DNA of 60,134 nt from positions 1-60,134 of IMG/VR virus record IMGVR_UViG_3300028025_004184; one strand, written 5' to 3'. A model generated the notes under the pieces. It searched no databases. It was given only the letters and a program-made list of their open reading frames with translations, and was not told the DNA's origin. Shown piece after piece: positions 199 to 52,809 of this stretch (within the stretch, counting starts at the first letter, position 1; every line of letters starts with the position of its first letter). The position numbers and the translations under genes are program-made. The stretch is from a virus.

Positions 199-227
199 CA
201 ACAAAGTGACAATCTCCTAACTTTTTT

Positions 228-248
228 ATAGCACCCTCATATAATGAG
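228..248 (+). promoter_or_regulatory. Late-type phage promoter element
   Basis: TAGCACCCTCATATAATGAGG matches the late-gene element (consensus CACCCTTATATTA) with C in place of the second T. The 3' part forms the palindrome CCTCAT-ATA-ATGAGG. No protein gene follows on this strand, only the structured non-coding stretch 249-576, so it is the likely promoter of that RNA. Confidence 0.6.
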
Positions 249-425
249 GATAAAGACTCGCATTGACTTTAGTCGGGACCGTGAAAAAAAGCAGACCTTA
301 GACCTTTTAAGCTCTGTCAGCGTATGCCCCTGAGATAGCATAACTTGTCATCGTGGGATAATGAGACAAGCGGAATGCCCCTAAATCAATGACAATTTAC
401 GCCAAGGTTGATGAAACGAGACTAG

Positions 426-442
426 TTGGCACAGACTTTGCA
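426..442 (+). promoter_or_regulatory. Sigma54-like -24/-12 site 1
   Basis: TTGGCACA-GACT-TTGCA. GG and GC dinucleotides are separated by 10 bases as in sigma54 promoters (consensus TGGCACG-N4-TTGCW). It lies inside the candidate RNA A, so it could also be chance conservation of RNA sequence. Confidence 0.4.
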
Positions 443-543
443 AGGAAAGTGTTGAGTACTTGGAAAGGCATAAAACGGCATGTCAAGCAATGACAGCTTA
501 GTTCTTTTGCGCCCTATTGTCAAATTAAAATCATTTATAAAGG

Positions 544-574
544 AAAACAGCCTAGGCATAACCTAAGCTGTTTT
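544..574 (+). terminator. Hairpin, possible end of RNA A
   Basis: AAAACAGC (544-551) pairs perfectly with GCTGTTTT (567-574). An inner TAGG/CCTA helix and a CATAA loop follow after one mismatch. The short T run at the 3' side suggests an intrinsic terminator. Confidence 0.5.
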
Positions 575-651
575 AAAGGTAGGATAAGACTCGCCACCAG
601 CGTTTTGACGGCCTGAAAGGGCCTCTGGTGACTTGCCCGACTAGTAGTGTA

Positions 652-744
652 TTAGTTGATCTCGAAGGCTTTGAGCAAAAGCTCTGATCTTGAGATTATG
701 TTAAGTGTTATTAAAAGTATCACTAAGCCTATGTAATTTCTCAT
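652..744 (-). CDS. 30-residue membrane peptide
   Basis: ATG at 744-742 preceded by the strong ribosome site AAGGGGATAAT, the same AAGGGGA type used by other early genes here. The peptide is one hydrophobic helix (GLVILLITLNII, residues 6-17) followed by a short polar tail. No family recognised. The minus-strand sigma54-like site at 1076-1092 and weak sigma70-like sequence near 770 could serve it. Very short, but the ribosome site argues it is real. Confidence 0.5.
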   Translation of the reverse strand: MRNYIGLVILLITLNIISRSELLLKAFEIN

Positions 745-863
745 ATTATCCCCTTGCTTAAAACAATATTACATCACAACGCATCAAAATACAATAGCCA
801 AACAAAATAAAGTTTTGTCAAGCCATTTATTTGCAATCTTGAAAATAATTCCCTTGACAAGCA

Positions 864-880
864 TTGGCACGAGTCTTGCA
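864..880 (+). promoter_or_regulatory. Sigma54-like -24/-12 site 2 (exact consensus)
   Basis: TTGGCACG-AGTC-TTGCA, identical to the published sigma54 consensus TGGCACG-N4-TTGCW, with exact GG-N10-GC spacing. It points right, where no plus-strand gene follows. Confidence 0.65.
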
Positions 881-925
881 TTAGCAAAGCCAATTACCAG
901 CGTATATTCTTGCAAAGAAAATGTT

Positions 926-942
926 TTGGCATGGCTTTTGCG
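926..942 (+). promoter_or_regulatory. Sigma54-like -24/-12 site 3
   Basis: TTGGCATG-GCTT-TTGCG. All key dinucleotides are at the right spacing. It lies 46 bases after the end of site 2 on the same strand. Confidence 0.55.
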
Positions 943-1056
943 TTATTGCATTGCTTTCCAGAAATGCTATAATAAGTTAACACCAGCGAAACAAGGCAAG
1001 TTGGATAAAAGAGCCTGACAGTAATCAAGATTAGGGGAAAAGCAAGCAAAAAAAAA

Positions 1057-1073
1057 TAGGCAAGAAACTTGCA
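1057..1073 (+). promoter_or_regulatory. Sigma54-like -24/-12 site 4
   Basis: TAGGCAAG-AAAC-TTGCA. Weaker -24 half, perfect spacing. It is part of a 36-base imperfect repeat (1059-1094) that recurs at 2339-2374. Confidence 0.45.
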
Positions 1074-1075
1074 TC

Positions 1076-1092
1076 TGCAAGGCCCATGCCAA
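1076..1092 (-). promoter_or_regulatory. Sigma54-like -24/-12 site 5
   Basis: On the minus strand TTGGCATG-GGCC-TTGCA. It begins only a few bases beyond the early operon terminator and points left toward the membrane peptide gene at 744. Confidence 0.6.
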
Positions 1093-1095
1093 GCT

Positions 1096-1117
1096 AAAAA
1101 AGCTCCCCGAAGGGAGC
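1096..1117 (-). terminator. Early operon terminator with UUCG tetraloop
   Basis: Read leftward: GCTCCC-TTCG-GGGAGC followed by a T run. C(UUCG)G is the ultra-stable tetraloop. It lies 16 bases after the last gene of the leftward early operon. Confidence 0.9.
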
Positions 1118-1132
1118 GTAGCGACTGGAGAG

Positions 1133-1378
1133 TTAAACCATCGCCATAGCTGATTTTAGCACGTTGGGCTTAAGGATAGCGTCTGTTAGCATTTGGAGTT
1201 GATTCTTGTCTTCAAGTTCCATGCCAAAGTGGTTGAACAGCATATCATTGACCAGATCAGTCTCGTTGCCTCGCCACCCAAGTTCGTCAAGCTCATAGTC
1301 AAGGTCTGAAAACATTGCCAAGAATTGTTGGCGTTGTTGCTTGTTTAGTCTCTTAAGTATTTGTAATAAATAAATCAT
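1133..1378 (-). CDS. Early protein, 81 residues, unknown
   Basis: ATG start with ribosome site AAGAGGATCAAC. Acidic, helical protein (MIYLLQILKRLNKQQRQQFL... DLDYELDELGW) with no recognisable domain. Last gene before the UUCG terminator and probably co-transcribed with the genes at 1598 and 1933. The C-terminus ends AMAMV and lacks the SSLxKEL tag of the genes upstream. Confidence 0.75.
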   Translation of the reverse strand: MIYLLQILKRLNKQQRQQFLAMFSDLDYELDELGWRGNETDLVNDMLFNHFGMELEDKNQLQMLTDAILKPNVLKSAMAMV

Positions 1379-1400
1379 GTTGATCCTCTTTGTTTAGTAA

Positions 1401-1598
1401 TTAAATCTTGTTTACTAGCCAGTAAAAACTCTTATTTTGCTCTTCAATATCTTTGCTAGGCTTTGTTACTGGAATGTCCACCATGTTTGATTGATGGTCA
1501 TCAGCCAAAACTTGATAATTACCATCTGAAAGTAAAACAAGCCTGACATAATCCTTTTGAGAAATTGAATATTCTTTTTTAAGTGTAGCGTAGTTCAT
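1401..1598 (-). CDS. Early protein, 65 residues, unknown
   Basis: ATG with ribosome site AAAGGGGAAATAA. Short, probably mixed alpha/beta (SQKDYVRLVLLSDGNYQVL). It has its own extended -10 promoter directly upstream (1630-1657), giving a leader of about 25 bases. No family recognised. Confidence 0.8.
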   Translation of the reverse strand: MNYATLKKEYSISQKDYVRLVLLSDGNYQVLADDHQSNMVDIPVTKPSKDIEEQNKSFYWLVNKI

Positions 1599-1629
1599 TT
1601 ATTTCCCCTTTGTTTTTTCGTCCTATGTC

Positions 1630-1657
1630 ATTGTACCACACTGACAGGTAGCGTCAA
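1630..1657 (-). promoter_or_regulatory. Early sigma70 promoter with extended -10
   Basis: Minus strand: TTGACG, 16-base spacer, TACAAT, with TGG before the -10. The surrounding word CAGTGTGnTACAATGA is shared with the promoter at 1967-1994. Confidence 0.8.
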
Positions 1658-1660
1658 GCT

Positions 1661-1933
1661 TTATTTGTTAAGCTCATCTAGTTCGTCCTGTAGGTTAAAC
1701 TTTTGCTTTCTCAGCTCATAAAACTTAATTTGTAGCAGTCTAGTGGTTTCCGAGAAAGATGGCATGTCCTTTGAAGGCATTGGAAAAAAATCTCTCTCGT
1801 AAAGCCCCATGGCATTTAATATCTTTTGAATGGCATCTAGTTCGTGCTGTAGTCTTGCGATATTACACTGCAACGTGCTTTTCTTTTGCACTTGTGACAT
1901 GTTTAGTATAAACTCTTTTGTTGGCGTTTGCAT
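1661..1933 (-). CDS. Early coiled-coil protein, 90 residues
   Basis: ATG with ribosome site AAGGGGAACACA. Two helical, charged segments (about residues 15-45 and 62-90, ending LQDELDELNK) suggest an antiparallel coiled coil. No domain recognised. A promoter lies immediately upstream at 1967-1994. Confidence 0.8.
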   Translation of the reverse strand: MQTPTKEFILNMSQVQKKSTLQCNIARLQHELDAIQKILNAMGLYERDFFPMPSKDMPSFSETTRLLQIKFYELRKQKFNLQDELDELNK

Positions 1934-1966
1934 TGTGTTCCCCTTGTTGTTGTCTTGATATACCTC

Positions 1967-1994
1967 ATTGTATCACACTGCATTAATTCTGCAA
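1967..1994 (-). promoter_or_regulatory. Early sigma70 promoter with extended -10
   Basis: Minus strand: TTGCAG, 16-base spacer, TACAAT, TGA before the -10. Shares CAGTGTGnTACAATGA with the promoter at 1630-1657. Confidence 0.75.
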
Positions 1995-2034
1995 CTTCAA
2001 TGACTTAGACGTTTCCTCCAGTGTTATCAACAAC

Positions 2035-2068
2035 TTAGCAGGATAAAATCTTTAGAATAAACTGCTAA
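2035..2068. repeat. Inverted repeat TTAGCAG/CTGCTAA
   Basis: Seven-base perfect arms (2035-2041, 2062-2068) around a 20-base spacer, in the intergenic stretch between the gene at 1933 and the plus-strand gene at 2176. It could be an operator or a weak hairpin. No T run. Confidence 0.35.
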
Positions 2069-2117
2069 AGCATTGTAAACACACTTTTTGCTAAGCTAAG
2101 CTATTGAATTTCAAAGA

Positions 2118-2146
2118 TTCTTTGATTTTATGTTTTTTGCTATAAT
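2118..2146 (+). promoter_or_regulatory. Sigma70 promoter with extended -10 (TGCTATAAT)
   Basis: TTCTTT, 17 bases, TATAAT, with TGC before the -10. Perfect -10 and extension, weak -35. Drives the plus-strand gene at 2176. Confidence 0.7.
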
Positions 2147-2175
2147 TTAGGAGTGAGATAAACAAAGGGGAGAAT

Positions 2176-2295
2176 ATGAAAGAATATTTTGTTATCTTTG
2201 ATGCGAATGATAAAGTGATTGCCTATGTTGACCGTAAAGGTCTAAACGATTGGCTTGAAAATGTAGAAGGTGAGTGGTATTACACTATGGCATAA
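2176..2295 (+). CDS. 39-residue early protein on the opposite strand
   Basis: ATG preceded by AAAGGGGAGAAT and by its own promoter at 2118-2146. The protein (MKEYFVIFDANDKVIAYVDR...) looks like a small beta-rich domain. It is the only credible plus-strand gene in the leftward early region. Unknown function. Confidence 0.7.
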   Translation: MKEYFVIFDANDKVIAYVDRKGLNDWLENVEGEWYYTMA

Positions 2296-2305
2296 TAATT
2301 GCATA

Positions 2306-2322
2306 AGCAAGAACCATGCCAA
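2306..2322 (-). promoter_or_regulatory. Sigma54-like -24/-12 site 6
   Basis: Minus strand TTGGCATG-GTTC-TTGCT. First of three leftward-facing sites within 93 bases. Confidence 0.55.
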
Positions 2323-2336
2323 GGAAGGCAAGGCTT

Positions 2337-2353
2337 CTGGCACGAAGCTTGCA
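2337..2353 (+). promoter_or_regulatory. Sigma54-like -24/-12 site 7 (exact consensus core)
   Basis: CTGGCACG-AAGC-TTGCA, exact TGGCACG-N4-TTGCA match on the plus strand. It faces the 3' end of a minus-strand gene. Confidence 0.65.
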
Positions 2354-2355
2354 AG

Positions 2356-2372
2356 TGCAAGATCAATGCCAA
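2356..2372 (-). promoter_or_regulatory. Sigma54-like -24/-12 site 8
   Basis: Minus strand TTGGCATT-GATC-TTGCA. Confidence 0.55.
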
Positions 2373-2381
2373 GCCAACCCA

Positions 2382-2398
2382 TGCAAGGCTGATGCCAA
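2382..2398 (-). promoter_or_regulatory. Sigma54-like -24/-12 site 9
   Basis: Minus strand TTGGCATC-AGCC-TTGCA. Confidence 0.55.
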
Positions 2399-2418: not shown

Positions 2419-2431
2419 GGGGGGGGGGGGG
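2419..2431 (+). repeat. Run of 13 G
   Basis: A 13-base G homopolymer in an otherwise AT-rich genome, between the sigma54-like array and the 3' end of the gene at 2496. Length may vary between particles or be a sequencing error. Confidence 0.8.
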
Positions 2432-5212: not shown

Positions 5213-5470
5213 ATGGGAAAAGCAAAGAAAGATGAATATAATGAAGAAACCTTATCAGGATTGCTAACTGGAGCATTTGAGGCTATACTTCCAGAAAGGA
5301 AGGAAAGAGATAAAACTCCAGAAGAGCTTCGTGATGAGGAGTTGAAGTATGAGCTTAGAAAATCCGCATTAGGTAAAACTGCCGGATGGGGAGACTATAA
5401 GTTTAATTGGGAAGAAGAAAGAGATAAAAAACTAAACTTACCTGTAAAGCCTAGAAAGTATAAAGATTAG
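5213..5470 (+). CDS. Charged protein, 85 residues, first late gene
   Basis: Very charged helical protein (ERKERDKTPEELRDEELKYELRKSALGK) with no second methionine. There is no ribosome site at normal distance; GCAGGAAG lies 30 bases up, before the promoter core. Possibly translated leaderless. Position beside a structural-type gene suggests a virion or assembly role, unproven. Confidence 0.7.
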   Translation: MGKAKKDEYNEETLSGLLTGAFEAILPERKERDKTPEELRDEELKYELRKSALGKTAGWGDYKFNWEEERDKKLNLPVKPRKYKD

Positions 5471-7631: not shown

Positions 7632-8414
7632 ATGGCAGAAGATAATAAAAAAAATAGTTTAGCGTCATTAGCAGCATATTCAGCTGCTCTTAGAGAATTA
7701 TATGATTCTACCCCGGACAGATTAAGCAAGGCCTCTGCAGGAGAATTTAGCGATATTATAAATAAAGCTGTAGCAAATGATGCTATGAAAAAAGCTAATA
7801 TAACGCCATATACTCCAGAAGAGTATTCCAAATTCAAAACATTTTTATCAAAGGATAAGGAATCTGGCTATGCTATTAAGCCCGGTTCCATGACTGATGC
7901 CGGTAAGGATGAGTTAATTTCCGTATTTTCTAATAAAAGAGGTAGAGGTCCGGGGATACTAGAACATGCGGTAGATGTCGGAGGAGCTAAGCAATTAGAT
8001 GCTTTTGACATAAACAATAAACTACCTAGCTTATACGGTAAAGAATTTAATGAAACTTATAGATATAAATTTGATCCGCAATACGCCCCTGCTGATTGGA
8101 ATTATGAAAAAGTAGGAACTCCGGATGTTATAGGAATGCAGTTAGATCCAGAAAAAGCTGCTATCAGAACTGGTCGTCAAGTAGGAAAATCTATTGCTAA
8201 ATTTGGACTCCCAGCATTGGCATTAGGTGCGGCATCTGCCTCCGAATCTCCAGAGCAAGCTTTGATGGACATGATAATACCCGGTGGAGTAGAATCTGTG
8301 GGATCTGCAGATGATGATGCTATTATGAGAGGCGAAGCTCAGGGATATAAAAATTATCAAAATAGCCCTGCTGCTAAGGCTAGACGAGCTGCATTAGAAA
8401 AGTTAGGAAAATAA
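7632..8414 (+). CDS. Acetyltransferase-like protein with virion-type C-terminus
   Basis: 260 residues, starting MAEDN like its neighbour. Residues 77-170 (SGYAIKPGS..., ELISVFSNKRGRGPGILEHA, AKQLDAFD, YGKEFNETYRYKFD, YAPADWNYEKVGTPDVI) follow a pattern known from phage polyvalent-type and GNAT-like domains: VFS, a glycine-rich turn, GAxxLDxFD, then LYxKxFxExxR. A hydrophobic stretch (191-204, FGLPALALGAASAS) and the tag KARRAALEKLGK close the protein. The enzymatic assignment is tentative; the C-terminal similarity to the two previous genes is plain. Confidence 0.6.
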   Translation: MAEDNKKNSLASLAAYSAALRELYDSTPDRLSKASAGEFSDIINKAVANDAMKKANITPYTPEEYSKFKTFLSKDKESGYAIKPGSMTDAGKDELISVFSNKRGRGPGILEHAVDVGGAKQLDAFDINNKLPSLYGKEFNETYRYKFDPQYAPADWNYEKVGTPDVIGMQLDPEKAAIRTGRQVGKSIAKFGLPALALGAASASESPEQALMDMIIPGGVESVGSADDDAIMRGEAQGYKNYQNSPAAKARRAALEKLGK

Positions 8415-29781: not shown

Positions 29782-32451
29782 ATGGCTCAACAAATTAAAA
29801 AGAAGTTTATCGGCCAAGATCAGGTTGATGGATCTAAGGTAAAACTTCTTAAAGACCAGTCTTTACGTGGTCAAAAACAAGATGGTTCTGATGTAGAACT
29901 ATTAAAACTAGATGGTAGCGACAAGCTAGTATCTGATGGGCAAGAAATTGCTTTTAAATCACAAGTAGATGCTGAACAAGCTCGTGCTGAAGGTGAAGAA
30001 TCTCGTATTGAGGGATTACTTTCTCAAGAAGTTTCTGACCGTCAATCTGAAGTTTCTCGTGTAGAAGGTCTTCTTTCTGATGAAGAAGCTGCTCGCATCG
30101 CTGGTGACTTAGATCTTCAAGGTCAAATGGATTCTGAAGAATCAGCTCGTATTTCAGCAGATCAAACTCTTCAATCTAATTTAGATTCTGAAGTTTCTCG
30201 TGCTGAAGGAGAAGAGTCCCGCATTGAAGGTAAAGTAGATCAAGAAATCTCTGATCGTCAATCTGCAATATCAACTGAAGAAGCTGCTCGTATTGCTGGT
30301 GATGCAAGTACTTTAGCATCTGCTAATGAGTACACAGATGGAGAAATTGAGACACTTAGTCAGTCAGTTAATTCACAACTTGAGCAAGAAATTGCTGATA
30401 GAGAAGCTGCTGATCAAAACTTACAATCTCAAGTTAATACTGAAAAAGGTCGTATTGATGCAATTTTATCAGCATCTCAAGCTGATAAAGATAGCTTTGC
30501 TGAAATCGTTGATTTAATCAATTCAGTAGATACTGAGAATGATTCAGCTTTCGCTTCTTACGTTCTTTCTAATAATGCTGCTCTAGCCCAAGAAGTTTCT
30601 GATAGACAGTCTGGAGATCAAACTCTTCAGTCTAACATTGACTCAGAAGAATCTCGTGCTATGGGTGTTGAATCTGACCTCCAATCTCAAATTGATTCTG
30701 AGGAATCAAGAGCTATGGGAGTTGAGTCTAGCTTACAAAGTCAAATTGACGCTGAAGAGTCTAGAGCTATGGGCGTTGAATCTGATCTTCAAAGCCAGAT
30801 TGATACAGAAGAGTCTCGTGCTATGTCTGCAGAATCTGCACTTAGCGGAAGAGTTTCCACTCTTGAAGCAGATGCTGTAACTAAGACTTATGTTGATACA
30901 CACGATGGTCTTTTACAAACAGCTATTACTGCTGAAGAAACAGCGAGAATTGCTGGAGATGCTGCTCTAATGTCTACTATCGAAAATCTCGATGGTTATG
31001 CACTAGACGTTCGTGATGATTTAGACGCTGAAATTGCTGCAAGAATTGCTGGTGACTTAGATCTTCAAGGTCAAATTGACAGTGAAGAAGCTGCTCGTAT
31101 CGCTGCTGTTTCTGCTGAGCAAACTGCTCGTGAAGCTGCGGATTCTACAGAGCAAGCTGCTCGTATTGCTGGTGATGATGCTTTACAAGCTTCTTTAACT
31201 CAAGAAATTTCTGATCGTCAATCTGCAGTATCTGCTGAAGCTTCTGCTAGAGAATCTGCTGATACTACGCTTCAATCTAATATTGACGCTGAAGAATCTC
31301 GTGCTATGGGCGAAGAGTCTCGCATTGAGTCTAAATTTGATGGAATGATGTCTGATGAGCAAACTGCTAGAGAAGCTGCTGACACTGTACTTCAAGGCAA
31401 TATTGATGTTGAAAAAGGTCGTATTGATGCTATTCTTTCTGCTTCTGAAGCAGACAAAGATAGTTTTGCTGAAATCGTTCAGTTGATTAACTCTGTTGAT
31501 ACTGAAAATGATCAAGCTTTTGCTGGATATGTTCTTTCTAATAATCAAGCTCTTGCTGATGAAGTATCTGCTAGAGAAGCTGCTGACACTGTACTTCAAG
31601 GTCAGATTGATGCAGAAGTAGCAAGAGCTACTGAAGCTGAGGGATTTTTACAGGATGATATAATAACAGAAACACAAGCTAGACAAGCTGCTATTTCTAA
31701 TGTTATGCAGCAGACAGACGAGAATTTTATTATGAAAAATTCTCAGAACAGAGCCAGTGGTGAAGAGGATATGTATGGTACATATGTTGGAAATGATCTA
31801 ACATTTGAAATGGGTAGATATTCTGGAGGTACTTCTGGATCAGGTACAGTACTTTTTAGTGGAAATAGCTTATCCAGTGAACTTAAGTTAATGGCAAAAA
31901 ATCAAAATGGAGATTTTGTTTCCTATTCTAGATTACAACCGAGTAACTGGATTGTTAGCGATTACATGGGATCTAATAATGTTCAGATTGCTCCGGGAGT
32001 TATACACGTACAACAAGGTAATAAGCATTTAGATTTTAGTAATTTTGACGTAGGTCAAATTGAAATTCTAAATTTTGAAGATTATTCTCCTGTGATGCCT
32101 ACTTTAGCAGGTAGTTTAGTTGTTAAAGCTTATGTTGATCAAGAAGTTTCTGATCTTTCTAGTCGTTTAGACGCTATTGAGTCTGAAACGGATGGTCCTT
32201 TCTTTGAAAAACAAAAGTTTATTATCGATGAAGCTTCTGAACTTAGCTCTATTGAGTTAAGCCACGAGTGTATCGAAAACTCACTTGTTGTTTGCGTCGG
32301 TCGTCTAATGGCTCACAAAGATGAAGATTACTCAGTATCTGTTGTTGGCGGTAAAACCGTTCTAACATGGATGGGTGATTTTGCTCAAGGTGGATCTGAA
32401 GGCATCGAGAATGGTGATGTAATTTTTGTTACATTCGCTAGAGAAGTCTAA
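29782..32451 (+). CDS. Coiled-coil tail fibre shaft protein
   Basis: 889 residues. About 600 residues of repeats (SRAMGVESDLQSQID, AREAADTVLQGQID) predict a long trimeric coiled coil. A globular module beginning GRIDAILSASxADKDSFAEI occurs twice, near residues 226 and 547. Then a beta part (670-790) and the C-terminal domain (FIIDEASELSSIELSH..., GDVIFVTF) also seen in the gene before. Strong ribosome site GGGAG. Own terminator follows. Confidence 0.85.
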   Translation: MAQQIKKKFIGQDQVDGSKVKLLKDQSLRGQKQDGSDVELLKLDGSDKLVSDGQEIAFKSQVDAEQARAEGEESRIEGLLSQEVSDRQSEVSRVEGLLSDEEAARIAGDLDLQGQMDSEESARISADQTLQSNLDSEVSRAEGEESRIEGKVDQEISDRQSAISTEEAARIAGDASTLASANEYTDGEIETLSQSVNSQLEQEIADREAADQNLQSQVNTEKGRIDAILSASQADKDSFAEIVDLINSVDTENDSAFASYVLSNNAALAQEVSDRQSGDQTLQSNIDSEESRAMGVESDLQSQIDSEESRAMGVESSLQSQIDAEESRAMGVESDLQSQIDTEESRAMSAESALSGRVSTLEADAVTKTYVDTHDGLLQTAITAEETARIAGDAALMSTIENLDGYALDVRDDLDAEIAARIAGDLDLQGQIDSEEAARIAAVSAEQTAREAADSTEQAARIAGDDALQASLTQEISDRQSAVSAEASARESADTTLQSNIDAEESRAMGEESRIESKFDGMMSDEQTAREAADTVLQGNIDVEKGRIDAILSASEADKDSFAEIVQLINSVDTENDQAFAGYVLSNNQALADEVSAREAADTVLQGQIDAEVARATEAEGFLQDDIITETQARQAAISNVMQQTDENFIMKNSQNRASGEEDMYGTYVGNDLTFEMGRYSGGTSGSGTVLFSGNSLSSELKLMAKNQNGDFVSYSRLQPSNWIVSDYMGSNNVQIAPGVIHVQQGNKHLDFSNFDVGQIEILNFEDYSPVMPTLAGSLVVKAYVDQEVSDLSSRLDAIESETDGPFFEKQKFIIDEASELSSIELSHECIENSLVVCVGRLMAHKDEDYSVSVVGGKTVLTWMGDFAQGGSEGIENGDVIFVTFAREV

Positions 32452-35642: not shown

Positions 35643-38600
35643 ATGGCGGTACTAACGATCAAACGAGGACTAGTAACTTCGCCAAATGAATTAGCTCTGC
35701 CTGATGGGGCACTTTCTGTAGCCGATAACTGCGTTATTGACTCTGATAATATCATAGAGCCTAGAAGAGGATTTTCTGAGTTTGGAAATAAAACAGATGA
35801 GTCTGATTCTGTTGTAAAACAGTTAATGACCTACAAGGGTCGAATAATTAGACATTTCGATAGCAAGCTAAGTTTTGACTCAAACGGTAATGGATCATTT
35901 CTAAACTTCGATGGCTCATACTCTGAACTAGTATCTAGGCTAAGAATAAAATACTTCGAGCTTAACTCCAATCTATACTTTACGACAAACGAAGGTATTA
36001 AGAAAATATCGGCTAAATCGGCTGATGACTTTTCAACTAATGCTGACTATATTACTAACGCTGGAGGAGTAAAAGCAGTAGGTCTTGAGGCTAAACTTGT
36101 TCCAAATGTGGCTGGGTTTTTACCAGCTCAGTCTAAAGTTGCGTATAAGGTGCTATGGGCTAGAAAAGACGCTAATGGTAATATCATAAGAGGCGTTCCC
36201 AGCTCTAGAAAAGTTATAACCAATACCTCAACCGATGTTAATACTGGAGAATCATTTACAGTTACAGTGTATGACGCTGGTGCTGGTATTCATAAATCAT
36301 TCGATTCTACTTCTAGCATATCTAGTGGAGTTCAGACTACATTCTTAGCTGCTGCAGTAAATATTACAGACAATACAATCGCACTAACTACTGGCGCAAC
36401 CGATCACAATTATCAAACAAATGATTTAGTAAAGCTAGTACAAAATGGAACTGATGCATTACCTACAGGACTTTCTGCTGGTAACTACTATGTAATTAGA
36501 GTAGATACTAATAAGATTAAACTAAAGACAACTCCTACTGGAACAGAAGTGGATATTACTGCGACTGGAGTTAGTGGTATAATTGAAAGCACTAATGTTG
36601 GAAAAACAATTACAATAACTTCTCATGGATACGAAGATGGAGATAAAGTTAGGCTTTATGGAGTGTTGCCAAATGAACTTGATACTACTAAGACCTATTA
36701 TATAGTAAATAAGACAACCGATACATTCCAGTTATCTCTTACCTCTGGCGGAGCTGCAATTTACTTAACTAAAAAAGTTGGAACAGCTAATATCTACAGT
36801 GGCTTATCTAGTAATGACTTCTTTCTGTTTGATTCACCAACAAATAAATTTGCTGCATGGTTTAATATATCTGGAGAAGATGTTTCTCCAACAAGTAGTC
36901 TTTTACTTGGTCGTCAACTTATAGAAGTTCCTATCTATAAAATAGCTATAAAGAATAAGATAAACTATGCTTCAAAAATAGCAGAGTCTCTTTACACAAT
37001 ATCAGATATTGAAGTAGAGGTTGGCACTGAAGTTGTTACTGTTACTAACCGAGATGGCGGAGATGTGTTGGATGCTAGTCAGGGCGGTATGGATGTAACA
37101 TACGCTGCAGTATCTAAAATTTATGACGGTAGAACAGCTATAGGAACTCCTGCGAATGTACAGATTACTGCCATAGTTCCGGGGGAAATAGCTAGTAAAG
37201 ACTATTTTTATGAGGTGTATAGGACAGCTGTAGTAACTGTTCAGACTGGTCTAGCGCTAAATGATATAGATCCGGGAGAAGAGTTTCAAAAGATATTTGA
37301 GTCTCCAGTTTCTACAAATGGGACCATTCCTTCAGAAGTAGTATTTGATGATACCTTACCAGAAACTTTTAGAGAGGGTGGAGCATACCTTTACACTAAC
37401 CCAGTAACAGGTGAGGGCGTACTTCAGGCAAACGAAGCTCCTCCGATATCACACGATGTCGCTATTTTTAAAGGGTCTGCATTTTACGCAAACACTAAAG
37501 AGCGTCATAGATTACAATTTAATATACTATCTGTATCTCAGTACACATCGGGTGTATCTAAGTTATTTATTGGTAATTCTACAAAAATGAATACTTACAC
37601 TTTTGTAGGAAAAAATGAAATTTTAAAATTTACAGCTAAGAAAAAAAGTGAAACTACCGAAAGTTCTTACTTTGATATAATGTCAGCTCAAAATAAAATA
37701 AAATATAGAGTTTGGTTTGATAAAGGAGGATCTACTCCTCCTGATCAAGATAATTGTTTATTGCTTAAAGTTCCAATGCAGACTTATGAAGATACCATTC
37801 AGGGTTCTGTAGACGCTTTTGTTGAGGCTTTTTTTGATATTAATGATTTTTCAATAACAAATATTAATCATGAGTTTAACTCTCTTGATGATGTAAATAG
37901 TTCTACAGAGACAATCACTATTCCAGCTCATGGATTTTTAGATGGTGATACTGTAACCTTTTCTGGGACATCTCCAACAAATATTACTAATGACACTGTT
38001 TATTATATAGTAGATAAAACTGCTGATACCTTTAAAGTATCGCTATCTAGTGGAGGAACTCCTGTGGATATTACTGCTATTGCAGGAACTTCTAGGGTGG
38101 CACAAACAACCGTTATTGTAACTTACGCTGACAATGGTGACGCAGATCCCGTAGTTCAATCTTCTCCAGCTACCGGTTGGATTTCTCCTACTATAATTCA
38201 AGAAGGTGATGGAGAGAATGCTTCAAATAATGAAGTACTATTATCAGGACTCGCTTCTCAATCCTTATCTATTGAAGACACAGCTAGATCTTTAGAGAAA
38301 GTCATAAACAAAGACCCTACTTCTCCAGTAAATGCATTTTATTTATCAGGCTTAAATGACCTTCCCGGATTGTTATTACTGGAATCTAGGTCTCTTCTGG
38401 ATGACCCATTCTACCTAGCTTTTAATGAAGAGTTTACAGACTCTCTAGGTAATCCAATAGCAGTATTTGAACCTAGTTTGCCAGTAGCGAAAACAATTAC
38501 TAGCATTGTAACTTCTACTCCTGAAGCTGTGTTTTATACAACCCCTGTTTTGCATGGATTATCTTTAAATCAAGAAGTTTATGCATACGTAGACGCTACC

Positions 38601-40256
38601 ATTGACTCAGTAAAAAATCCTACTATAATAGGTAAGAAGTTGGTGTCTGGAATACCTTCCACCACATCGTTCAAATTATCTGGTGTTTCTTCAGCATCTC
38701 TTTCAGCTTTTCAACAAGCTATTGTATTTCCAGCTGATGTGGTTTCTGATAACTCTGTAAATCCAAATAGAGTGTATTTTTCCAAGATTTACCAACCAGA
38801 GGCTGTGCCTCTTGTCAACTATATTGATATTGGAGCAAGAGATAAGAAGATTCAAAGAATCATCGCACTTAGAGATAGTTTAGCTGTTCTAAAAGAAGAG
38901 GGTGTGTACATCATATCAGGGCCTTCTGCTCCTAACTTCTCAGTGAGGCTTTGTGACTCCTCTGCGTTAACTTTCGCACCAGACACGGCTGTTAACTTGA
39001 ACAACCTTGTGTACGTACTAACGAGCCAAGGTGTGGTTACTGTTTCAGAAACAGGTATCCAAGTTATGTCAAGAAATATTGAGAACAAGATACAGGAAGT
39101 GACTACTTCCAAGTTTGATTATAAAATGATGAGCTGGGGACTGTCTTCAGAGTCTGACAGATGTTACATTCTATGGCTTCCAGAAAAGACAACAAACCAA
39201 TATGCAACACAAGCATATAGGTATAATACATTTACTAGAGCTTGGACTAGATGGACAAAGCCAGCTAATTGTGGAGTTGTAAATCCCGCAGATGACAAGA
39301 TGTACCTTGGAGACTCGTCAGGAAGACCTTATGTTCTTCAAGAAAGAAAGAATTTTGAAAGACAAGATCACGCAGACAGAGAGATCATAAAGAGCATACA
39401 GCCTGATGGAGTTAGTGGAACTACTCATACCCTATCATCAGCTTCTGAAATAGCTATTGGTGATGTTATGACTCAGATACAGTACTTAGATATAAATAAA
39501 TTTAATAGATTCTTAAAGAAACTAGATAGGGATAGGTTCTCTTCATCCCCTGATAAATATATAACTCTAAAGGCAGTAGCAGGAGACAGCTTAGGACTTA
39601 AGCTTCAAGAAGTTGAAGCCAAACTACTATCGGATGGGATTATAATAACTCCTAGCAGCTCTGGATCAGATGTAGCAGCAGATATTGCTAATAACTTTAA
39701 CGCAATTGTTACAGTTTTAAACGATCCTCTTACCTTGAATAATTACAAAGACTACAAGTATGTTGAAGACGCACTAACCTACGAAGTACTCATAGTTGGA
39801 GTGAATGTAGGAACTAACTCTGTTACTACTAAGTCACAGAATAAGTTTGTAGCTGGGGATGTGTCCATATTCAAAGGAATACAGTGCATTGTTCAGTACG
39901 CTCCGCAACACTTTGGAAAACCAGAGGCTACTAAGCAGATATCAGAAGGAACGCTAATATTCGACCAGAATAACTTCTGGGGCGGATCTGTTGCCTATTC
40001 TTCAGACAGATCTTACGACTTCTCTAGTATAGAATTTTCAGGAAGAGGACCGGGATACTGGGACGGATACAACTGGGCTAATGCTACTTTTGGTGGAGAA
40101 GGTAATGAAGTTCCTGTGAGAACTTTACTTCCAATTGACAAGTCAAGATGTAGGTACTTGCATGTGCAATTTACCCACATTAACGCAAGAGAACAGTGGA
40201 AACTAATTGGAGTTTCTTTACAGCCTAGAGAAGTGTCTACTAGAGGGTACAGATAA
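35643..40256 (+). CDS. Tail nozzle protein (T7 gp12-like), enlarged
   Basis: 1537 residues, roughly twice the T7 gp12 length (794). Start RGLVTSPNELALPDGALSVA with NCVIDSDNIIEPRRGF is the nozzle signature. The C-terminal third has NRVYFSKIYQPEAVP and RIIALRDSLAVLKEEGVYII typical of the family. Several FCCH-like inserts are visible (HNYQTNDLVKLVQNG..., HGYEDGDKVRLYG..., HGFLDGDTVTFSG..., HGLSLNQEVYAY...). Forms the tail tip channel. Confidence 0.85.
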   Translation: MAVLTIKRGLVTSPNELALPDGALSVADNCVIDSDNIIEPRRGFSEFGNKTDESDSVVKQLMTYKGRIIRHFDSKLSFDSNGNGSFLNFDGSYSELVSRLRIKYFELNSNLYFTTNEGIKKISAKSADDFSTNADYITNAGGVKAVGLEAKLVPNVAGFLPAQSKVAYKVLWARKDANGNIIRGVPSSRKVITNTSTDVNTGESFTVTVYDAGAGIHKSFDSTSSISSGVQTTFLAAAVNITDNTIALTTGATDHNYQTNDLVKLVQNGTDALPTGLSAGNYYVIRVDTNKIKLKTTPTGTEVDITATGVSGIIESTNVGKTITITSHGYEDGDKVRLYGVLPNELDTTKTYYIVNKTTDTFQLSLTSGGAAIYLTKKVGTANIYSGLSSNDFFLFDSPTNKFAAWFNISGEDVSPTSSLLLGRQLIEVPIYKIAIKNKINYASKIAESLYTISDIEVEVGTEVVTVTNRDGGDVLDASQGGMDVTYAAVSKIYDGRTAIGTPANVQITAIVPGEIASKDYFYEVYRTAVVTVQTGLALNDIDPGEEFQKIFESPVSTNGTIPSEVVFDDTLPETFREGGAYLYTNPVTGEGVLQANEAPPISHDVAIFKGSAFYANTKERHRLQFNILSVSQYTSGVSKLFIGNSTKMNTYTFVGKNEILKFTAKKKSETTESSYFDIMSAQNKIKYRVWFDKGGSTPPDQDNCLLLKVPMQTYEDTIQGSVDAFVEAFFDINDFSITNINHEFNSLDDVNSSTETITIPAHGFLDGDTVTFSGTSPTNITNDTVYYIVDKTADTFKVSLSSGGTPVDITAIAGTSRVAQTTVIVTYADNGDADPVVQSSPATGWISPTIIQEGDGENASNNEVLLSGLASQSLSIEDTARSLEKVINKDPTSPVNAFYLSGLNDLPGLLLLESRSLLDDPFYLAFNEEFTDSLGNPIAVFEPSLPVAKTITSIVTSTPEAVFYTTPVLHGLSLNQEVYAYVDATIDSVKNPTIIGKKLVSGIPSTTSFKLSGVSSASLSAFQQAIVFPADVVSDNSVNPNRVYFSKIYQPEAVPLVNYIDIGARDKKIQRIIALRDSLAVLKEEGVYIISGPSAPNFSVRLCDSSALTFAPDTAVNLNNLVYVLTSQGVVTVSETGIQVMSRNIENKIQEVTTSKFDYKMMSWGLSSESDRCYILWLPEKTTNQYATQAYRYNTFTRAWTRWTKPANCGVVNPADDKMYLGDSSGRPYVLQERKNFERQDHADREIIKSIQPDGVSGTTHTLSSASEIAIGDVMTQIQYLDINKFNRFLKKLDRDRFSSSPDKYITLKAVAGDSLGLKLQEVEAKLLSDGIIITPSSSGSDVAADIANNFNAIVTVLNDPLTLNNYKDYKYVEDALTYEVLIVGVNVGTNSVTTKSQNKFVAGDVSIFKGIQCIVQYAPQHFGKPEATKQISEGTLIFDQNNFWGGSVAYSSDRSYDFSSIEFSGRGPGYWDGYNWANATFGGEGNEVPVRTLLPIDKSRCRYLHVQFTHINAREQWKLIGVSLQPREVSTRGYR

Positions 40257-40666
40257 TGCCAAAATTATCGGATATTAGAAGAATTGTTCCTGAAGACTAC
40301 GAAGAAGAATTTCAAGAGTCAGCTGAACTAATAGCTGGCTCTTATAATGAATTTGCTGACGAAGTGTATCAGCTAGTTAATGGTGGACTTGACTTTGATA
40401 ACTTAGCTAGGGCCTCTATTAGCATAGACATAACTTTTGACGCTTCTGGTAATCCTGTTGGAAATGCCAGTATTTCATGCAAACTTGCGTACGTGTCTAT
40501 GGTCCATATTGGAAAGATTCAAAATCTAACCAATAAGTCAGCTAGGATAACTCAAGTTCCCTATATAGACTGGACCTACTCCGGAGGAGGAATTGTTAAG
40601 ATTCTTTACGGAGTTGGATTTACAGCTGGTTCTAAATATAGACTAATATTAGAGCTTATTCAATAG
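40256..40666 (+). CDS. Tail-tip-associated protein, 136 residues
   Basis: Overlaps the nozzle stop by 1 base (TAATG). Helical start (PEDYEEEFQESAELIAGSYN) then a beta domain ending KYRLILELIQ. Proteins of this layout follow the nozzle gene in many podoviruses; probably connects nozzle and fibres. Confidence 0.7.
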   Translation: MPKLSDIRRIVPEDYEEEFQESAELIAGSYNEFADEVYQLVNGGLDFDNLARASISIDITFDASGNPVGNASISCKLAYVSMVHIGKIQNLTNKSARITQVPYIDWTYSGGGIVKILYGVGFTAGSKYRLILELIQ

Positions 40667-40689
40667 TTTACATAGCTTTACCTATATAG

Positions 40690-40960
40690 AGCATTAATCT
40701 CTTTTCAATAAAACCAACTCCTTAGTGTGCTTTTAGCTATTTGGGGTGAGGGCTTGGGCTTTTAACCTGAATGTATCTTTTCTACAAAGTTCCAAACTTC
40801 CAATAACTTTGCTTGACTCTCTGGCTTTCCGCTAGGTACTTAGTGGTTTTGCGACACCTAGTCGAGTATTTCGTTTCCTACACCGGCTCGTATATCGGAC
40901 TCGCTTGTAAGTCCTCTATTTCACGGTCCAAAAGAGCAAAAAGAGAAGAAATTAATCTTC
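40690..40960 (-). ncRNA. Candidate structured RNA, copy B
   Basis: A gap of nearly 400 bases between nozzle-associated and internal virion genes without a coding frame. Read leftward from the promoter at 40967-40995 it contains GGACCGTGAAA (40930-40920), the hairpin GGACT/AGTCC (40914-40910 with 40901-40897), and CTAGGT/ACCTAG (40861-40856 with 40837-40832) directly followed by CGGAAAGCC, as in copy A. A further stem CAAAGTT/AACTTTG follows. The 3' end is uncertain; a weak hairpin is seen near 40695-40710. Confidence 0.55.
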
Positions 40961-40966
40961 CTTGCT

Positions 40967-40995
40967 AATATACCATAACTTTTATATACTTGCAA
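40967..40995 (-). promoter_or_regulatory. Strong sigma70 promoter with extended -10
   Basis: Minus strand: TTGCAA, 17 bases, TATATT, with TGG before the -10. No protein gene follows, only RNA B. Diverges from the late element at 41030. Confidence 0.8.
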
Positions 40996-49669: not shown

Positions 49670-50217
49670 GATCCTACAATCCAATGTTTTTCATTAGCTT
49701 TATACTTCGGAAGTTCTTCTTGCTCAAATAAAGCCTTATCTAAAAACCTAATTCTATACTGTGGATAAAGCATAAGATAGCCATCATTTGTCTGAATGGC
49801 GTGTAACTGTTTCCAGTGAGTAGGGTGGCGAGAAAACCCCTCTCCAACAAAATCTATAGTAAAAAGATACTTTCCAGACTTGGCTGGTATCATATCAGGC
49901 TTAACTTCACACTCAGCGTACCTAAGAGTTTCCATAACAAAAAAGTCAATGTCATCGCTTACACAGTCCCACATCTGAGCGTCTTGAAGGTTTATAAGCC
50001 CATTAAACTCGTCCTCTCTAAAGGTTATGGCATGTGCCGGTAGTCCAGTAAAAAGAGCACCATTGTCCAATAAAATGCTAAATTGCAAAGCTTGGTTTTG
50101 TCTAGCCCTTACAGACACTAAATGTCCAGCCGTTTTGCCATAGAAGTTAGAGTCATCATTAAATAAGAACCTATTCCAAACATACACACGAATTGGAGGC
50201 AAGTTAGCGTTACTCAT
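49666..50217 (-). CDS. Conserved phage protein of unknown function, 183 residues
   Basis: ATG at 50217 overlaps the ClpX-like gene stop by 4 bases (ATGA). Begins MSNANLPPIRVYVWNRFLF, a start seen in conserved proteins of other large phages (NLPPIRVYVRxxYLY...), with LDNGALFTGLPAHAI and LINLQDAQMWDCVSDDI following that pattern (family from memory). The coupling to the ClpX-like gene suggests a partner or substrate adaptor, inferred. Confidence 0.75.
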   Translation of the reverse strand: MSNANLPPIRVYVWNRFLFNDDSNFYGKTAGHLVSVRARQNQALQFSILLDNGALFTGLPAHAITFREDEFNGLINLQDAQMWDCVSDDIDFFVMETLRYAECEVKPDMIPAKSGKYLFTIDFVGEGFSRHPTHWKQLHAIQTNDGYLMLYPQYRIRFLDKALFEQEELPKYKANEKHWIVGS

Positions 50218-51143
50218 CCCCAAACCCACTTAGGTTTACCACTCAACACTACCATAGAGTCTAGCGTGAATTGTTTTGGTTTAATCGCTAAGCTAGGGGC
50301 CTCAAACTGAGCGTTTAGCAAAGCTTCATCCAGTACACTGTGTAAGCCCCTAGCTCCTAATCCCTTCTCAATAGCCTTCTGCGCTATGATGTTAATAGCA
50401 CTATCTTCTACCACAAGCTCAATACCTTCGCTCAAAAACCACTCTTTAAACGAGTTTAGAATAGACCCCTTAGAGTCACGTAGGATCTTCCTGTAATCGT
50501 CAAATTTAAGCTCCTGAAGCTGTGTGATAACCGGGAATCTTCCAAGAAACTCAGGTATCATGCCAAAGTCCGTTAAACTCTGCACACTTGACGACTCTAG
50601 CCCTATAAAAGCACCAGAGCATATAAACATAATATCTTTAGTGTTCATCTTCTTATCATACTCGCCATTCTGAGAGTATTTAGAAATATATGGAACATCA
50701 CTACCTTCCAGTAGTTTTAGAAGTGACTGCTGCACTCCAAGACCATTAACATCTGGTCCATTTCCGTCATTAGATTTTTTACGAAGCTTATCTATCTCAT
50801 CGATGTATATAATAGACTTTGAGGCCTTATACTCGTTGCCTTCGCATATACCCAGTAAGTCTGTTATAAGTTCTTCTACACTTCTTCCCTGATATCCAGA
50901 GGAAGTGAACTGAGTTGCGTCACTTGTCAAAAAGTTAACGCCTAGTATTTGAGCCAGTATGGACACTAGATATGTCTTGCCACACCCAGTAGGTCCGATT
51001 AATAGCACGTTAGACTTTTTAATAGTACTGCCGTTCATTCTTTTAAAATGGTTATAAGCGGCCACAGACAAGGCTCTTTTAGTTTTCTCATGACCGATAA
51101 CGTACTCATCTAGCTGCTTTTTAATTTCTTCTGGAGTTTTCAT
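50214..51143 (-). CDS. ClpX-like AAA+ unfoldase lacking the ClpP-docking loop
   Basis: 309 residues. Clear ClpX homology: TPEEIKKQLDEYVIGHEKTK start, Walker A GPTGCGKT (50-57), pore loop GYQG (83-86, GYVG in ClpX), Walker B IIYIDE (111-116), GVQQSLLKLLEGS, arginine finger in PEFLGRFPV (R202), sensor 2 GLGARGLHSVLDEAL. It has no N-terminal zinc domain, the RKH loop is replaced (NGEYDKK), and the stretch that carries the IGF loop for ClpP binding is gone: only about 10 residues lie between GAFIGLE and FGMIPEFLG. So it probably remodels proteins without feeding ClpP. Confidence 0.9.
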   Translation of the reverse strand: MKTPEEIKKQLDEYVIGHEKTKRALSVAAYNHFKRMNGSTIKKSNVLLIGPTGCGKTYLVSILAQILGVNFLTSDATQFTSSGYQGRSVEELITDLLGICEGNEYKASKSIIYIDEIDKLRKKSNDGNGPDVNGLGVQQSLLKLLEGSDVPYISKYSQNGEYDKKMNTKDIMFICSGAFIGLESSSVQSLTDFGMIPEFLGRFPVITQLQELKFDDYRKILRDSKGSILNSFKEWFLSEGIELVVEDSAINIIAQKAIEKGLGARGLHSVLDEALLNAQFEAPSLAIKPKQFTLDSMVVLSGKPKWVWG

Positions 51144-52038: not shown

Positions 52039-52809
52039 TTAAAAAGTCAAACTAACTTTTTTGTTTCTTACTTCAATAAACTTTCTAGCATGTGAGAAGT
52101 TTTCTTTCTTAACATCTCTAGAGAACTTGATATCAATAGGAGCTGGAAGCAATGGACATGCCGAGAACACTACATTAATGATACCGAATGGAGTAGAAAC
52201 TTCTTCTGTGATCTCATCTTCAATAAGAGCTTTATCACATGTAACATCAGCTACTTGATCAGCTTGTCCAGTTTTTACAGCGTTCTCTCCAAAGCTCCAA
52301 AGCTCATTAACGATAGAGGCTTCGTAGTCTTTTAGAGGAATACCGATTCGTTTAGCAGCAGCTTTGTTCATGCCAGACAATACTTGATGAATTAGATCAA
52401 GTCTAGAATCTAGTTCTCCGGGAACTTGCCCAGACAGTCCTGAGATTGCACCTCTGTGACTCATCAATGTTCCAGATGGAGTGATGTATCGAATACCGAG
52501 TTGCTGAACTACTTGATAGCCCATAGATGCAGCTGATAGTGTAATTGTGTGAACAGGAATCTTTAGTGACTTAATTGTATCAATAAATCTTAGACCGTCC
52601 GCAACAGATCCACCCGGAGTGTCTAGAACTAAATAAAGCTTATTTGAAGACGTAGACTTAGCAAATACTTCCATGATCTTTTTAGCAACATACAGTCCAG
52701 TAAATGGCTGGTTAAAAACTACACTATTATCTTTAGTAAGTGTAATTTGTGCATTTTTAGCGAAGGCAGTATTGCAAATTAAAGCAATAATCATAATTAA
52801 TTTTAACAT
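52039..52809 (-). CDS. ClpP-like serine protease with export signal
   Basis: 256 residues. Signal peptide: K3, hydrophobic IMIIALICNT, AFA cleavage site before K18. ClpP/crotonase fold: PGGSVADG (65-72) oxyanion loop, nucleophile S95 in SAASMGYQ, H118 in LMSHRGAISG. At the usual third triad position (RDxFMS in ClpP) there is N168 in VNELWSFGE, so the acid seems to be missing. It lies in the same operon as the ClpX-like gene but would be outside the cytoplasm after export. Substrate unknown; periplasmic host protein degradation or lysis support are options. Confidence 0.85.
   Translation of the reverse strand: MLKLIMIIALICNTAFAKNAQITLTKDNSVVFNQPFTGLYVAKKIMEVFAKSTSSNKLYLVLDTPGGSVADGLRFIDTIKSLKIPVHTITLSAASMGYQVVQQLGIRYITPSGTLMSHRGAISGLSGQVPGELDSRLDLIHQVLSGMNKAAAKRIGIPLKDYEASIVNELWSFGENAVKTGQADQVADVTCDKALIEDEITEEVSTPFGIINVVFSACPLLPAPIDIKFSRDVKKENFSHARKFIEVRNKKVSLTF

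What the first reader, a model, noticed from the sequence alone, without database searches (positions are those of the whole stretch)
249..576. Structured RNA copy A behind a late-type promoter
A 330-base stretch without coding frame, with promoter, hairpins and terminator-like end. GGACCGTGAAA, then a hairpin followed directly by CGGAAwGCC about 95 bases later, are shared with copy B at 40.7-41.0 kb. Long structured RNAs of phages (GOLLD, ROOL types) are known, but this one is not recognised.
Basis: partly seen in the sequence, partly recalled or inferred. Interest (0 to 1): 0.75.

Follow-up and report, generated by a model that had tools for sequence, protein, structure and literature searches.

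The report
New paired structured RNA of phages
A group of uncultured phages carries two sister copies of a previously uncatalogued folded RNA; the fold is supported by matching base changes across relatives, but what it does is not yet known.

Summary
Window 252-576 (+), copy A, and 40673-40960 (-), copy B, are two diverged copies of one structured RNA with no Rfam match. Relatives in 11 further phage records give compensatory changes far above shuffled and slid controls. All types share a basal helix P1 interrupted by a one-by-four internal loop (A opposite AANG), the strand CGUGAAA(U/A)A(G/A)AG, and a hairpin P4 flush against the 3' strand of P1. A covariance model finds exactly two clear copies in the window and in four other records: A points toward the terminase gene, B is antisense just upstream of one structural-region gene. 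Each copy has a sigma-70-like promoter and no co-directional gene close behind it, so these look like free-standing RNAs, not leaders. In G003 and G005 copy A was not detected. Pattern hits in cellular genomes were chance. Most likely it is a trans-acting RNA that folds and binds a host or phage protein; the partner is unknown (inference). It is not GOLLD or ROOL. A side finding is a dense cluster of sigma-54-like sites at the A locus, one inside copy A, several forming dyads.

The parts
217..245 (+). promoter of copy A, CTAACT-17-TATAAT
   Evidence: sequence; TTAACT and the -10 region aligned in L042/L043; not listed by the consensus scan
252..576 (+). copy A RNA (start and end inferred)
   Evidence: 70% identical non-coding stretch in L042-L044; alifold z -5.05
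261..281 (+). P1 5' strand incl. GGG-A-CCG; pairs with 371-391
   Evidence: covariation
292..316 (+). P2 hairpin (CAGA..UCUG; CAUG..CAUG in relatives)
323..342 (+). P3 hairpin (UAUGC/GCAUA, CAUGC/GCAUG, CAAGC/GCUUG)
344..370 (+). P4 hairpin, loop CGUGGGAUWAUG, flush against P1 3' strand
371..391 (+). P1 3' strand incl. CGG-AAUG-CCC
401..430 (+). P5 hairpin GCCAA..UUGGC (GCCAU..AUGGC in relatives)
426..442 (+). sigma-54-like site TTGGCACAGACTTTGCA inside copy A
436..467 (+). P6 hairpin with GAA (445-447) opposite AGUA (455-458), sarcin-ricin/loop E-like; kept in L042, L043, L007
544..574 (+). terminal hairpin AAAACAGC..GCUGUUUU, terminator-like on both strands
   Evidence: sequence; fold
40967..40995 (-). 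promoter of copy B, TTGCAA-17-TATATT with TG before the -10
40673..40960 (-). copy B RNA (5' end about 40960 inferred)
   Evidence: 9-sequence alignment, 24 pairs with compensatory changes, alifold z -5.47
40816..40937 (-). copy B core: P1 (GCUCUUUUGG-A-CCG / CGG-AAAG-CCAGAGAGU) enclosing P2 40897-40914, P3 40863-40890, P4 40832-40861
   Evidence: CM E 8e-33 (the model was built with this row)
40776..40944 (-). outer helix CUUUUU/AGAAAAG type, enclosing the core and hairpin 40784-40812
40673..40716 (-). 3' hairpin UGGUUUUA../..GGUAAAGCUAUG

Best explanation
A and B are two paralogous copies of a phage-encoded, free-standing structured non-coding RNA of about 290-325 nt. Each is transcribed from its own sigma-70-like promoter against the direction of the surrounding genes. 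The RNA folds into a basal helix P1 holding a fixed A / AANG internal loop and several inner hairpins (P2, P3, P4), plus a 3' domain. Most likely it acts in trans: the folded core presents the conserved single-stranded and internal-loop positions to one common partner, probably a host or phage protein, while the stems drift freely. Shown here: homology of the copies, base pairing, conservation of the loop, two copies in five records, synteny. Inferred: that it is transcribed, that it acts in trans, that the partner is a protein. (That it is a real structured RNA family: about 0.93; the trans-acting mechanism on top of that: about 0.5.)
For: Homology: CM R1 gives E 1.6e-13 (L076) and 1.1e-10 (L077) for copies not used to build it. 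Pairing: P1+P4 over 13 distinct rows, 97.4% of cells paired, covariation score 0.511 against 0.109 shuffled and at most 0.12 slid; the three P1 pairs just outside the loop all show changes on both sides. Copy B: 24 pairs with compensatory changes, shuffled mean 8.7. Copy A: P2, P3, P4, P5, P6 change in concert. Consensus fold z -5.5 (B), -5.05 (A); the proposed transcript strand folds better than its complement, -51.6 against -42.3 and -68.8 against -62.5 kcal/mol. Loop: A opposite AAAG, AAUG, AACG or AAGG in every row while its flanks change. Two copies each in G000, G001, G007, G011, G012. No co-directional ORF close downstream, so not a leader. GGACCGTGAAA has no complement elsewhere in the window within one mismatch, which speaks against a conserved antisense seed there.
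Against: No transcript data; promoter calls rest on short consensus matches. No partner, phenotype or expression time is known. Copy A is fast-evolving: in G003 and G005 the model finds no A copy and only a GCGTGAAAAGAGAG motif is left, so A may be dispensable. Most of the aligned copies come from closely related phages, and most records are fragments. P2/P3 equivalence between A and B is by position, not by sequence.
Confidence: 0.5

Rival explanations
1. Cis-acting transcription element, like HK022 put: the nascent RNA folds behind the promoter and modifies RNA polymerase.
For: Two related copies per genome, each behind a promoter, as putL and putR in HK022 (PMC9378689).
Against: put RNAs are about 70 nt with two stem-loops; these are about 300 nt. 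No co-directional genes for 4.6 kb after A, and none of 80 aa or more outside opposite-strand genes for 35 kb after B. A is followed at once by a terminator-like hairpin.
Confidence: 0.12
2. The region is mainly a DNA regulatory stretch (sigma-54-like sites and dyads); hairpins are by-products of operator dyads or cruciforms.
For: 44 sigma-54-like matches in nine records against 0 for the reversed control pattern; one lies in copy A; several form head-to-head dyads.
Against: Copy B has no such site, yet the same core. Copy A of G011 (L007) has the RNA without a site inside it. The strand given folds better than its complement in A and B. Helices change sequence freely while loops stay fixed.
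Confidence: 0.12
3. Antisense small RNA that pairs with phage or host mRNAs.
For: Both copies are transcribed against the neighbouring genes; copy B runs to the end of the gene at 40256-40666.
Against: Longest complement elsewhere in the window is 14 (A) and 13 (B) nt against 12 for reversed controls; the conserved motif has no target in the window. Host targets cannot be tested, host unknown.
Confidence: 0.1
4. RNA for genome replication or packaging (origin transcript, virion RNA).
For: Two copies about 33-40 kb apart in opposite orientation on genomes of about 80 kb.
Against: GC-skew extremes (5.1 and 48.4 kb) follow gene direction and are about 4.7 and 7.5 kb away from A and B; terminase is of the ordinary TerL type, not phi29-like.
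Confidence: 0.1

Closest known systems
GOLLD and ROOL RNAs (phage/prophage ornate RNAs)
   Same: structured RNAs of phages, known from covariation, function unknown (PMC12286853)
   Different: 659 nt (ROOL env-120) to over 800 nt (GOLLD) and often near tRNA islands; here about 300 nt, no tRNA in the window, no Rfam match, two copies per genome, different core
HK022 put RNAs
   Same: two related copies per phage genome, each behind a promoter (PMC9378689)
   Different: about 70 nt, two stem-loops, followed by the genes they serve
phi29 packaging RNA (own knowledge)
   Same: phage structured RNA of fixed fold
   Different: single copy, different fold, other packaging motor; no Rfam match here
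sarcin-ricin / loop E (bulged-G) module (own knowledge)
   Same: P6 of the A type places GAA opposite AGUA next to a helix
   Different: a recurrent 3D module, not a family; seen only in the A type and L007

Membership tests
GOLLD (Rfam) | match to the Rfam covariance model | tested here: not met
   no match at gathering score in the window and none up to E=10 in either locus
GOLLD (Rfam) | size of several hundred to over 800 nt, often near tRNAs | tested here: not met
   about 290-325 nt; 0 tRNAs in the window
ROOL (Rfam) | match to the Rfam covariance model | tested here: not met
HK022 put element | two copies per genome, each behind a promoter | tested here: met
   five records with two copies; promoter hexamers
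HK022 put element | about 70 nt, two stem-loops | tested here: not met
   about 300 nt with P1-P7
HK022 put element | antitermination of host RNA polymerase in cis | not testable with these tools
   needs transcription assays
structured non-coding RNA in general | compensatory base changes above controls | tested here: met
structured non-coding RNA in general | discrete transcript | not testable with these tools
   no RNA data held
protein-coding small ORF | synonymous bias in relatives | tested here: not met
   1 synonymous and 6 non-synonymous codons, frameshift upstream
riboswitch or leader | co-directional ORF directly downstream | tested here: not met

The most novel reading that the evidence does not exclude
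A new class of phage RNA machine: a folded core (A / AANG loop in P1, CGUGAAA strand, P4 stacked on P1) that captures a host complex such as RNA polymerase, ribosome or a defence nuclease, with two paralogues per genome specialised for different targets or times, and a coupling of copy A to sigma-54-type control.
Probability: 0.2. Interest if true: 0.85.

Novelty: new variant of a known kind. Interest (0 to 1): 0.62.

Why it matters
Few structured RNAs of phages are known and most have no function assigned. This one is short enough for chemical probing and cryo-EM, has a covariation-supported core, and comes as two natural paralogues in one genome, which lets one ask which positions the common partner reads. 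The covariance model makes it possible to search metatranscriptomes and cultured phages.

Tried and rejected
Known Rfam family: none, even at permissive E-values (best hits are eukaryotic lncRNA/miRNA models and isrB with E > 5). Thermodynamic stability of single sequences as evidence: not significant. Coding peptide in copy A: rejected. Relatives in GTDB genomes: 13 pattern hits, about the number I expected by chance; R1 scores 18.5 bits or less, and the best two have broken P1 pairs. L003 and L006 from the first pattern scan: GC-rich, unrelated, chance (L003). Named phages: no meaningful DNA similarity for A or B. Copies in G008/G009 (terminase 45-49% identical): none found. Antisense targeting within the window: nothing clearly beyond chance. 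Origin/terminus by GC skew: no coincidence. P2 in one register for all types: fails for L007 (shifted by one). Literature search for phages with sigma-54 promoter arrays: nothing relevant found in the held library.

Full report
What was checked. Both shared motifs are present: GGACCGTGAAA at 276-286 (+) and 40919-40929 (-), with no other occurrence within one mismatch on either strand, and CGGAAWGCC at 371-379 and 40823-40831. Copy B is therefore on the minus strand. Rfam gives nothing, at gathering score for the window or up to E=10 for the two loci beyond chance-level hits to unrelated models, and there is no tRNA. Folding one sequence alone is no better than shuffled (z -1.0 and -0.15), so the case has to rest on comparison.

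Relatives. The window is an IMG/VR virus record of 60,134 bases. A gapped pattern of the two motifs hit 12 viral contigs; nine have exactly copy B's spacing and align with it over the whole RNA and its promoter. One (L007, record G011) is a third, more diverged type; two (L003, L006) are chance. Further patterns added no new phage record, only the second loci of records already in hand. Copy A with its surroundings is kept at about 70% in G001, G002 and G007 (L042-L044). The terminase relates the phages that carry the RNA at 63-93% identity, with remoter ones at 37-49%. Named phages are remote (best terminase 30%, a phage of Silvanigrella aquatica) and hold no similar DNA.

Two copies per genome. 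A covariance model R1 of the core (P1 and P4 pairs only; 11 rows of A, B and L007 type) was run on 33 records. Twelve records have clear matches. It found copies not used for building: G012 at 8337 (+), E 1.6e-13, and G011 at 37007-37124 (-), E 1.1e-10. G000, G001, G007, G011 and G012 each have exactly two clear copies. One is at the A locus, roughly 5-10 kb before the terminase gene and pointing toward it (in G001 this distance is counted across the ends of the record, assuming a circular map). The other is antisense, just upstream of the homologue of the 793-aa gene at 41060 (seen also in G003 and G005). Other records are fragments with one locus, or have B only. In G005 (80 kb) the A locus is there but the model does not score; a GCGTGAAAAGAGAG motif, also in G003, is all that recalls it. 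In GTDB genomes a pattern scan gave 13 hits; with R1 they score 18.5 bits or less and the best two have broken P1 pairs, so they are taken as chance.

The fold. On the 13 distinct rows of A4, P1 and P4 pair in 97.4% of cells. The covariation score is 0.511 against 0.109 in shuffles and at most 0.12 when strands are slid by 1-3 columns. A4 is fitted to this structure, which favours it, but the changes are visible by eye: the third pair outside the loop is U-A, G-C, A-U or C-G; in L076 the helix is CUUUUUUCC/GGAAAAAAG, in L077 UUUCCUAU..AG/CU..AUAGGAAA. Between these changing pairs sits an unchanging loop: a single A opposite AANG (AAAG, AAUG, AACG, AAGG). Inside P1 follow CGUGAAA(U/A)A(G/A)AG (CGUUAAAAAGAG in L076) and, at the other end, P4 directly abutting CGN. 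In copy B, 24 of 77 pairs show compensatory changes (shuffled mean 8.7; slid at most 6); helices P1, P2, P3, P4, the outer helix and the 40784-40812 hairpin all contribute. The structure counted there was derived from the same alignment, which inflates it somewhat. In copy A (three sequences) P2a, P3, P4, P5 and P6b change in concert with no loss of pairing. Column-shuffled alignments give z -5.5 (B), -5.05 (A) and -11.9 (core) for the consensus energy, and the proposed RNA strand is more stable than its complement. P6 of the A type and L007 has GAA facing AGUA next to a changing helix, the signature of a sarcin-ricin/loop E module (module recalled from general knowledge).

Transcription. Copy B has TTGCAA-17-TATATT with a TG before the second hexamer, aligned in relatives. 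Copy A has CTAACT-17-TATAAT, TTAACT in relatives; the consensus scan did not list it. L007 has TATAAT shortly before GGGACC. Copy A ends in a hairpin AAAACAGC..GCUGUUUU that would also end a convergent minus-strand gene. Neither copy precedes an ORF on its own strand: after A the next substantial plus-strand gene starts at 5213; after B no minus-strand ORF of 80 aa or more follows for 35 kb apart from overlaps inside plus-strand genes. Both run against the local gene direction. This argues for free-standing RNAs.

How it most likely works. Stems vary and loops do not, in paralogues that have otherwise diverged strongly (the longest exact match of A and B is 11 nt). That is what selection for one shape recognised by one partner looks like. 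I therefore favour a trans-acting RNA that binds a protein or ribonucleoprotein. The partner, the timing and the effect are unknown; this step is inference and I give it about even odds. Rivals (put-like cis element, DNA element, antisense RNA, replication or virion RNA) are listed with their tests.

A second thing in the same place. The sequence TGGCAY-N5-TTGCW, the consensus of sigma-54 promoters (own knowledge), occurs 8 times in the window (6 for a stricter form, 0.02 expected), all between 427 and 2397, and 44 times in nine records against none for the reversed pattern. One lies in copy A at 426-442, kept in L042-L044; others follow the core in G012 and lie in the A locus of G005. Many stand in tandem 25-26 bases apart or as head-to-head dyads (TTGCA facing TGCAA), an arrangement that does not suit promoters, so a protein-binding repeat or a decoy array is as likely. 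It is absent from copy B and from within the RNA of G011, so it is not part of the RNA family.

Novelty. Not a member of any Rfam family; the kind is known (structured phage RNA), the fold and two-copy arrangement are new to me. I found no earlier description in the held literature, which excludes most subscription journals and all preprints.

Noticed in passing
window 426-2398; L042 2202-3768; L114 4698-6711; L111 40-964: Dense cluster of sigma-54-like sites TTGGCAY-N5-TTGCA, 44 in nine related records against 0 for the reversed control; some in tandem with 25-26 bp period, some as head-to-head dyads. Promoters, decoys or operator repeats.
   Followed up: partly
window 652-744 (-): Tiny conserved ORF MRNYIGLVILLITLNIISRSELLLKAFEIN, probably a membrane peptide, convergent with copy A; L042/L043 encode a similar peptide (L044 strand: MKTYIILVLTLTLVNLLSRSDTVLKAFEQ).
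   Followed up: partly
window 2419-2431; L114 6739-6756; L111 1-8; L020 4503-4515: Long poly-G tract next to the sigma-54-like array in several phages; the records of G001 and G005 end near it.
   Followed up: no
window 580-640: Further hairpin whose stem differs between window and L042 but seems to pair in both, around a conserved CGTTTTGA-like stretch; may belong to the minus-strand transcript.
   Followed up: no
G008:C1:15915-18488 and G009:C1:61738-64245: Terminase matches in two pieces within open frames of 884 and 850 aa: looks like an intein or large insert.
   Followed up: no
window 50214-51143 (-) and 52039-52809 (-): ClpX-like AAA ATPase and Clp protease genes encoded by the phage.
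   Followed up: no
window 29782-32451 (+): Long repetitive protein with degenerate repeats (54-base and related spacings), fibre-like.
   Followed up: no
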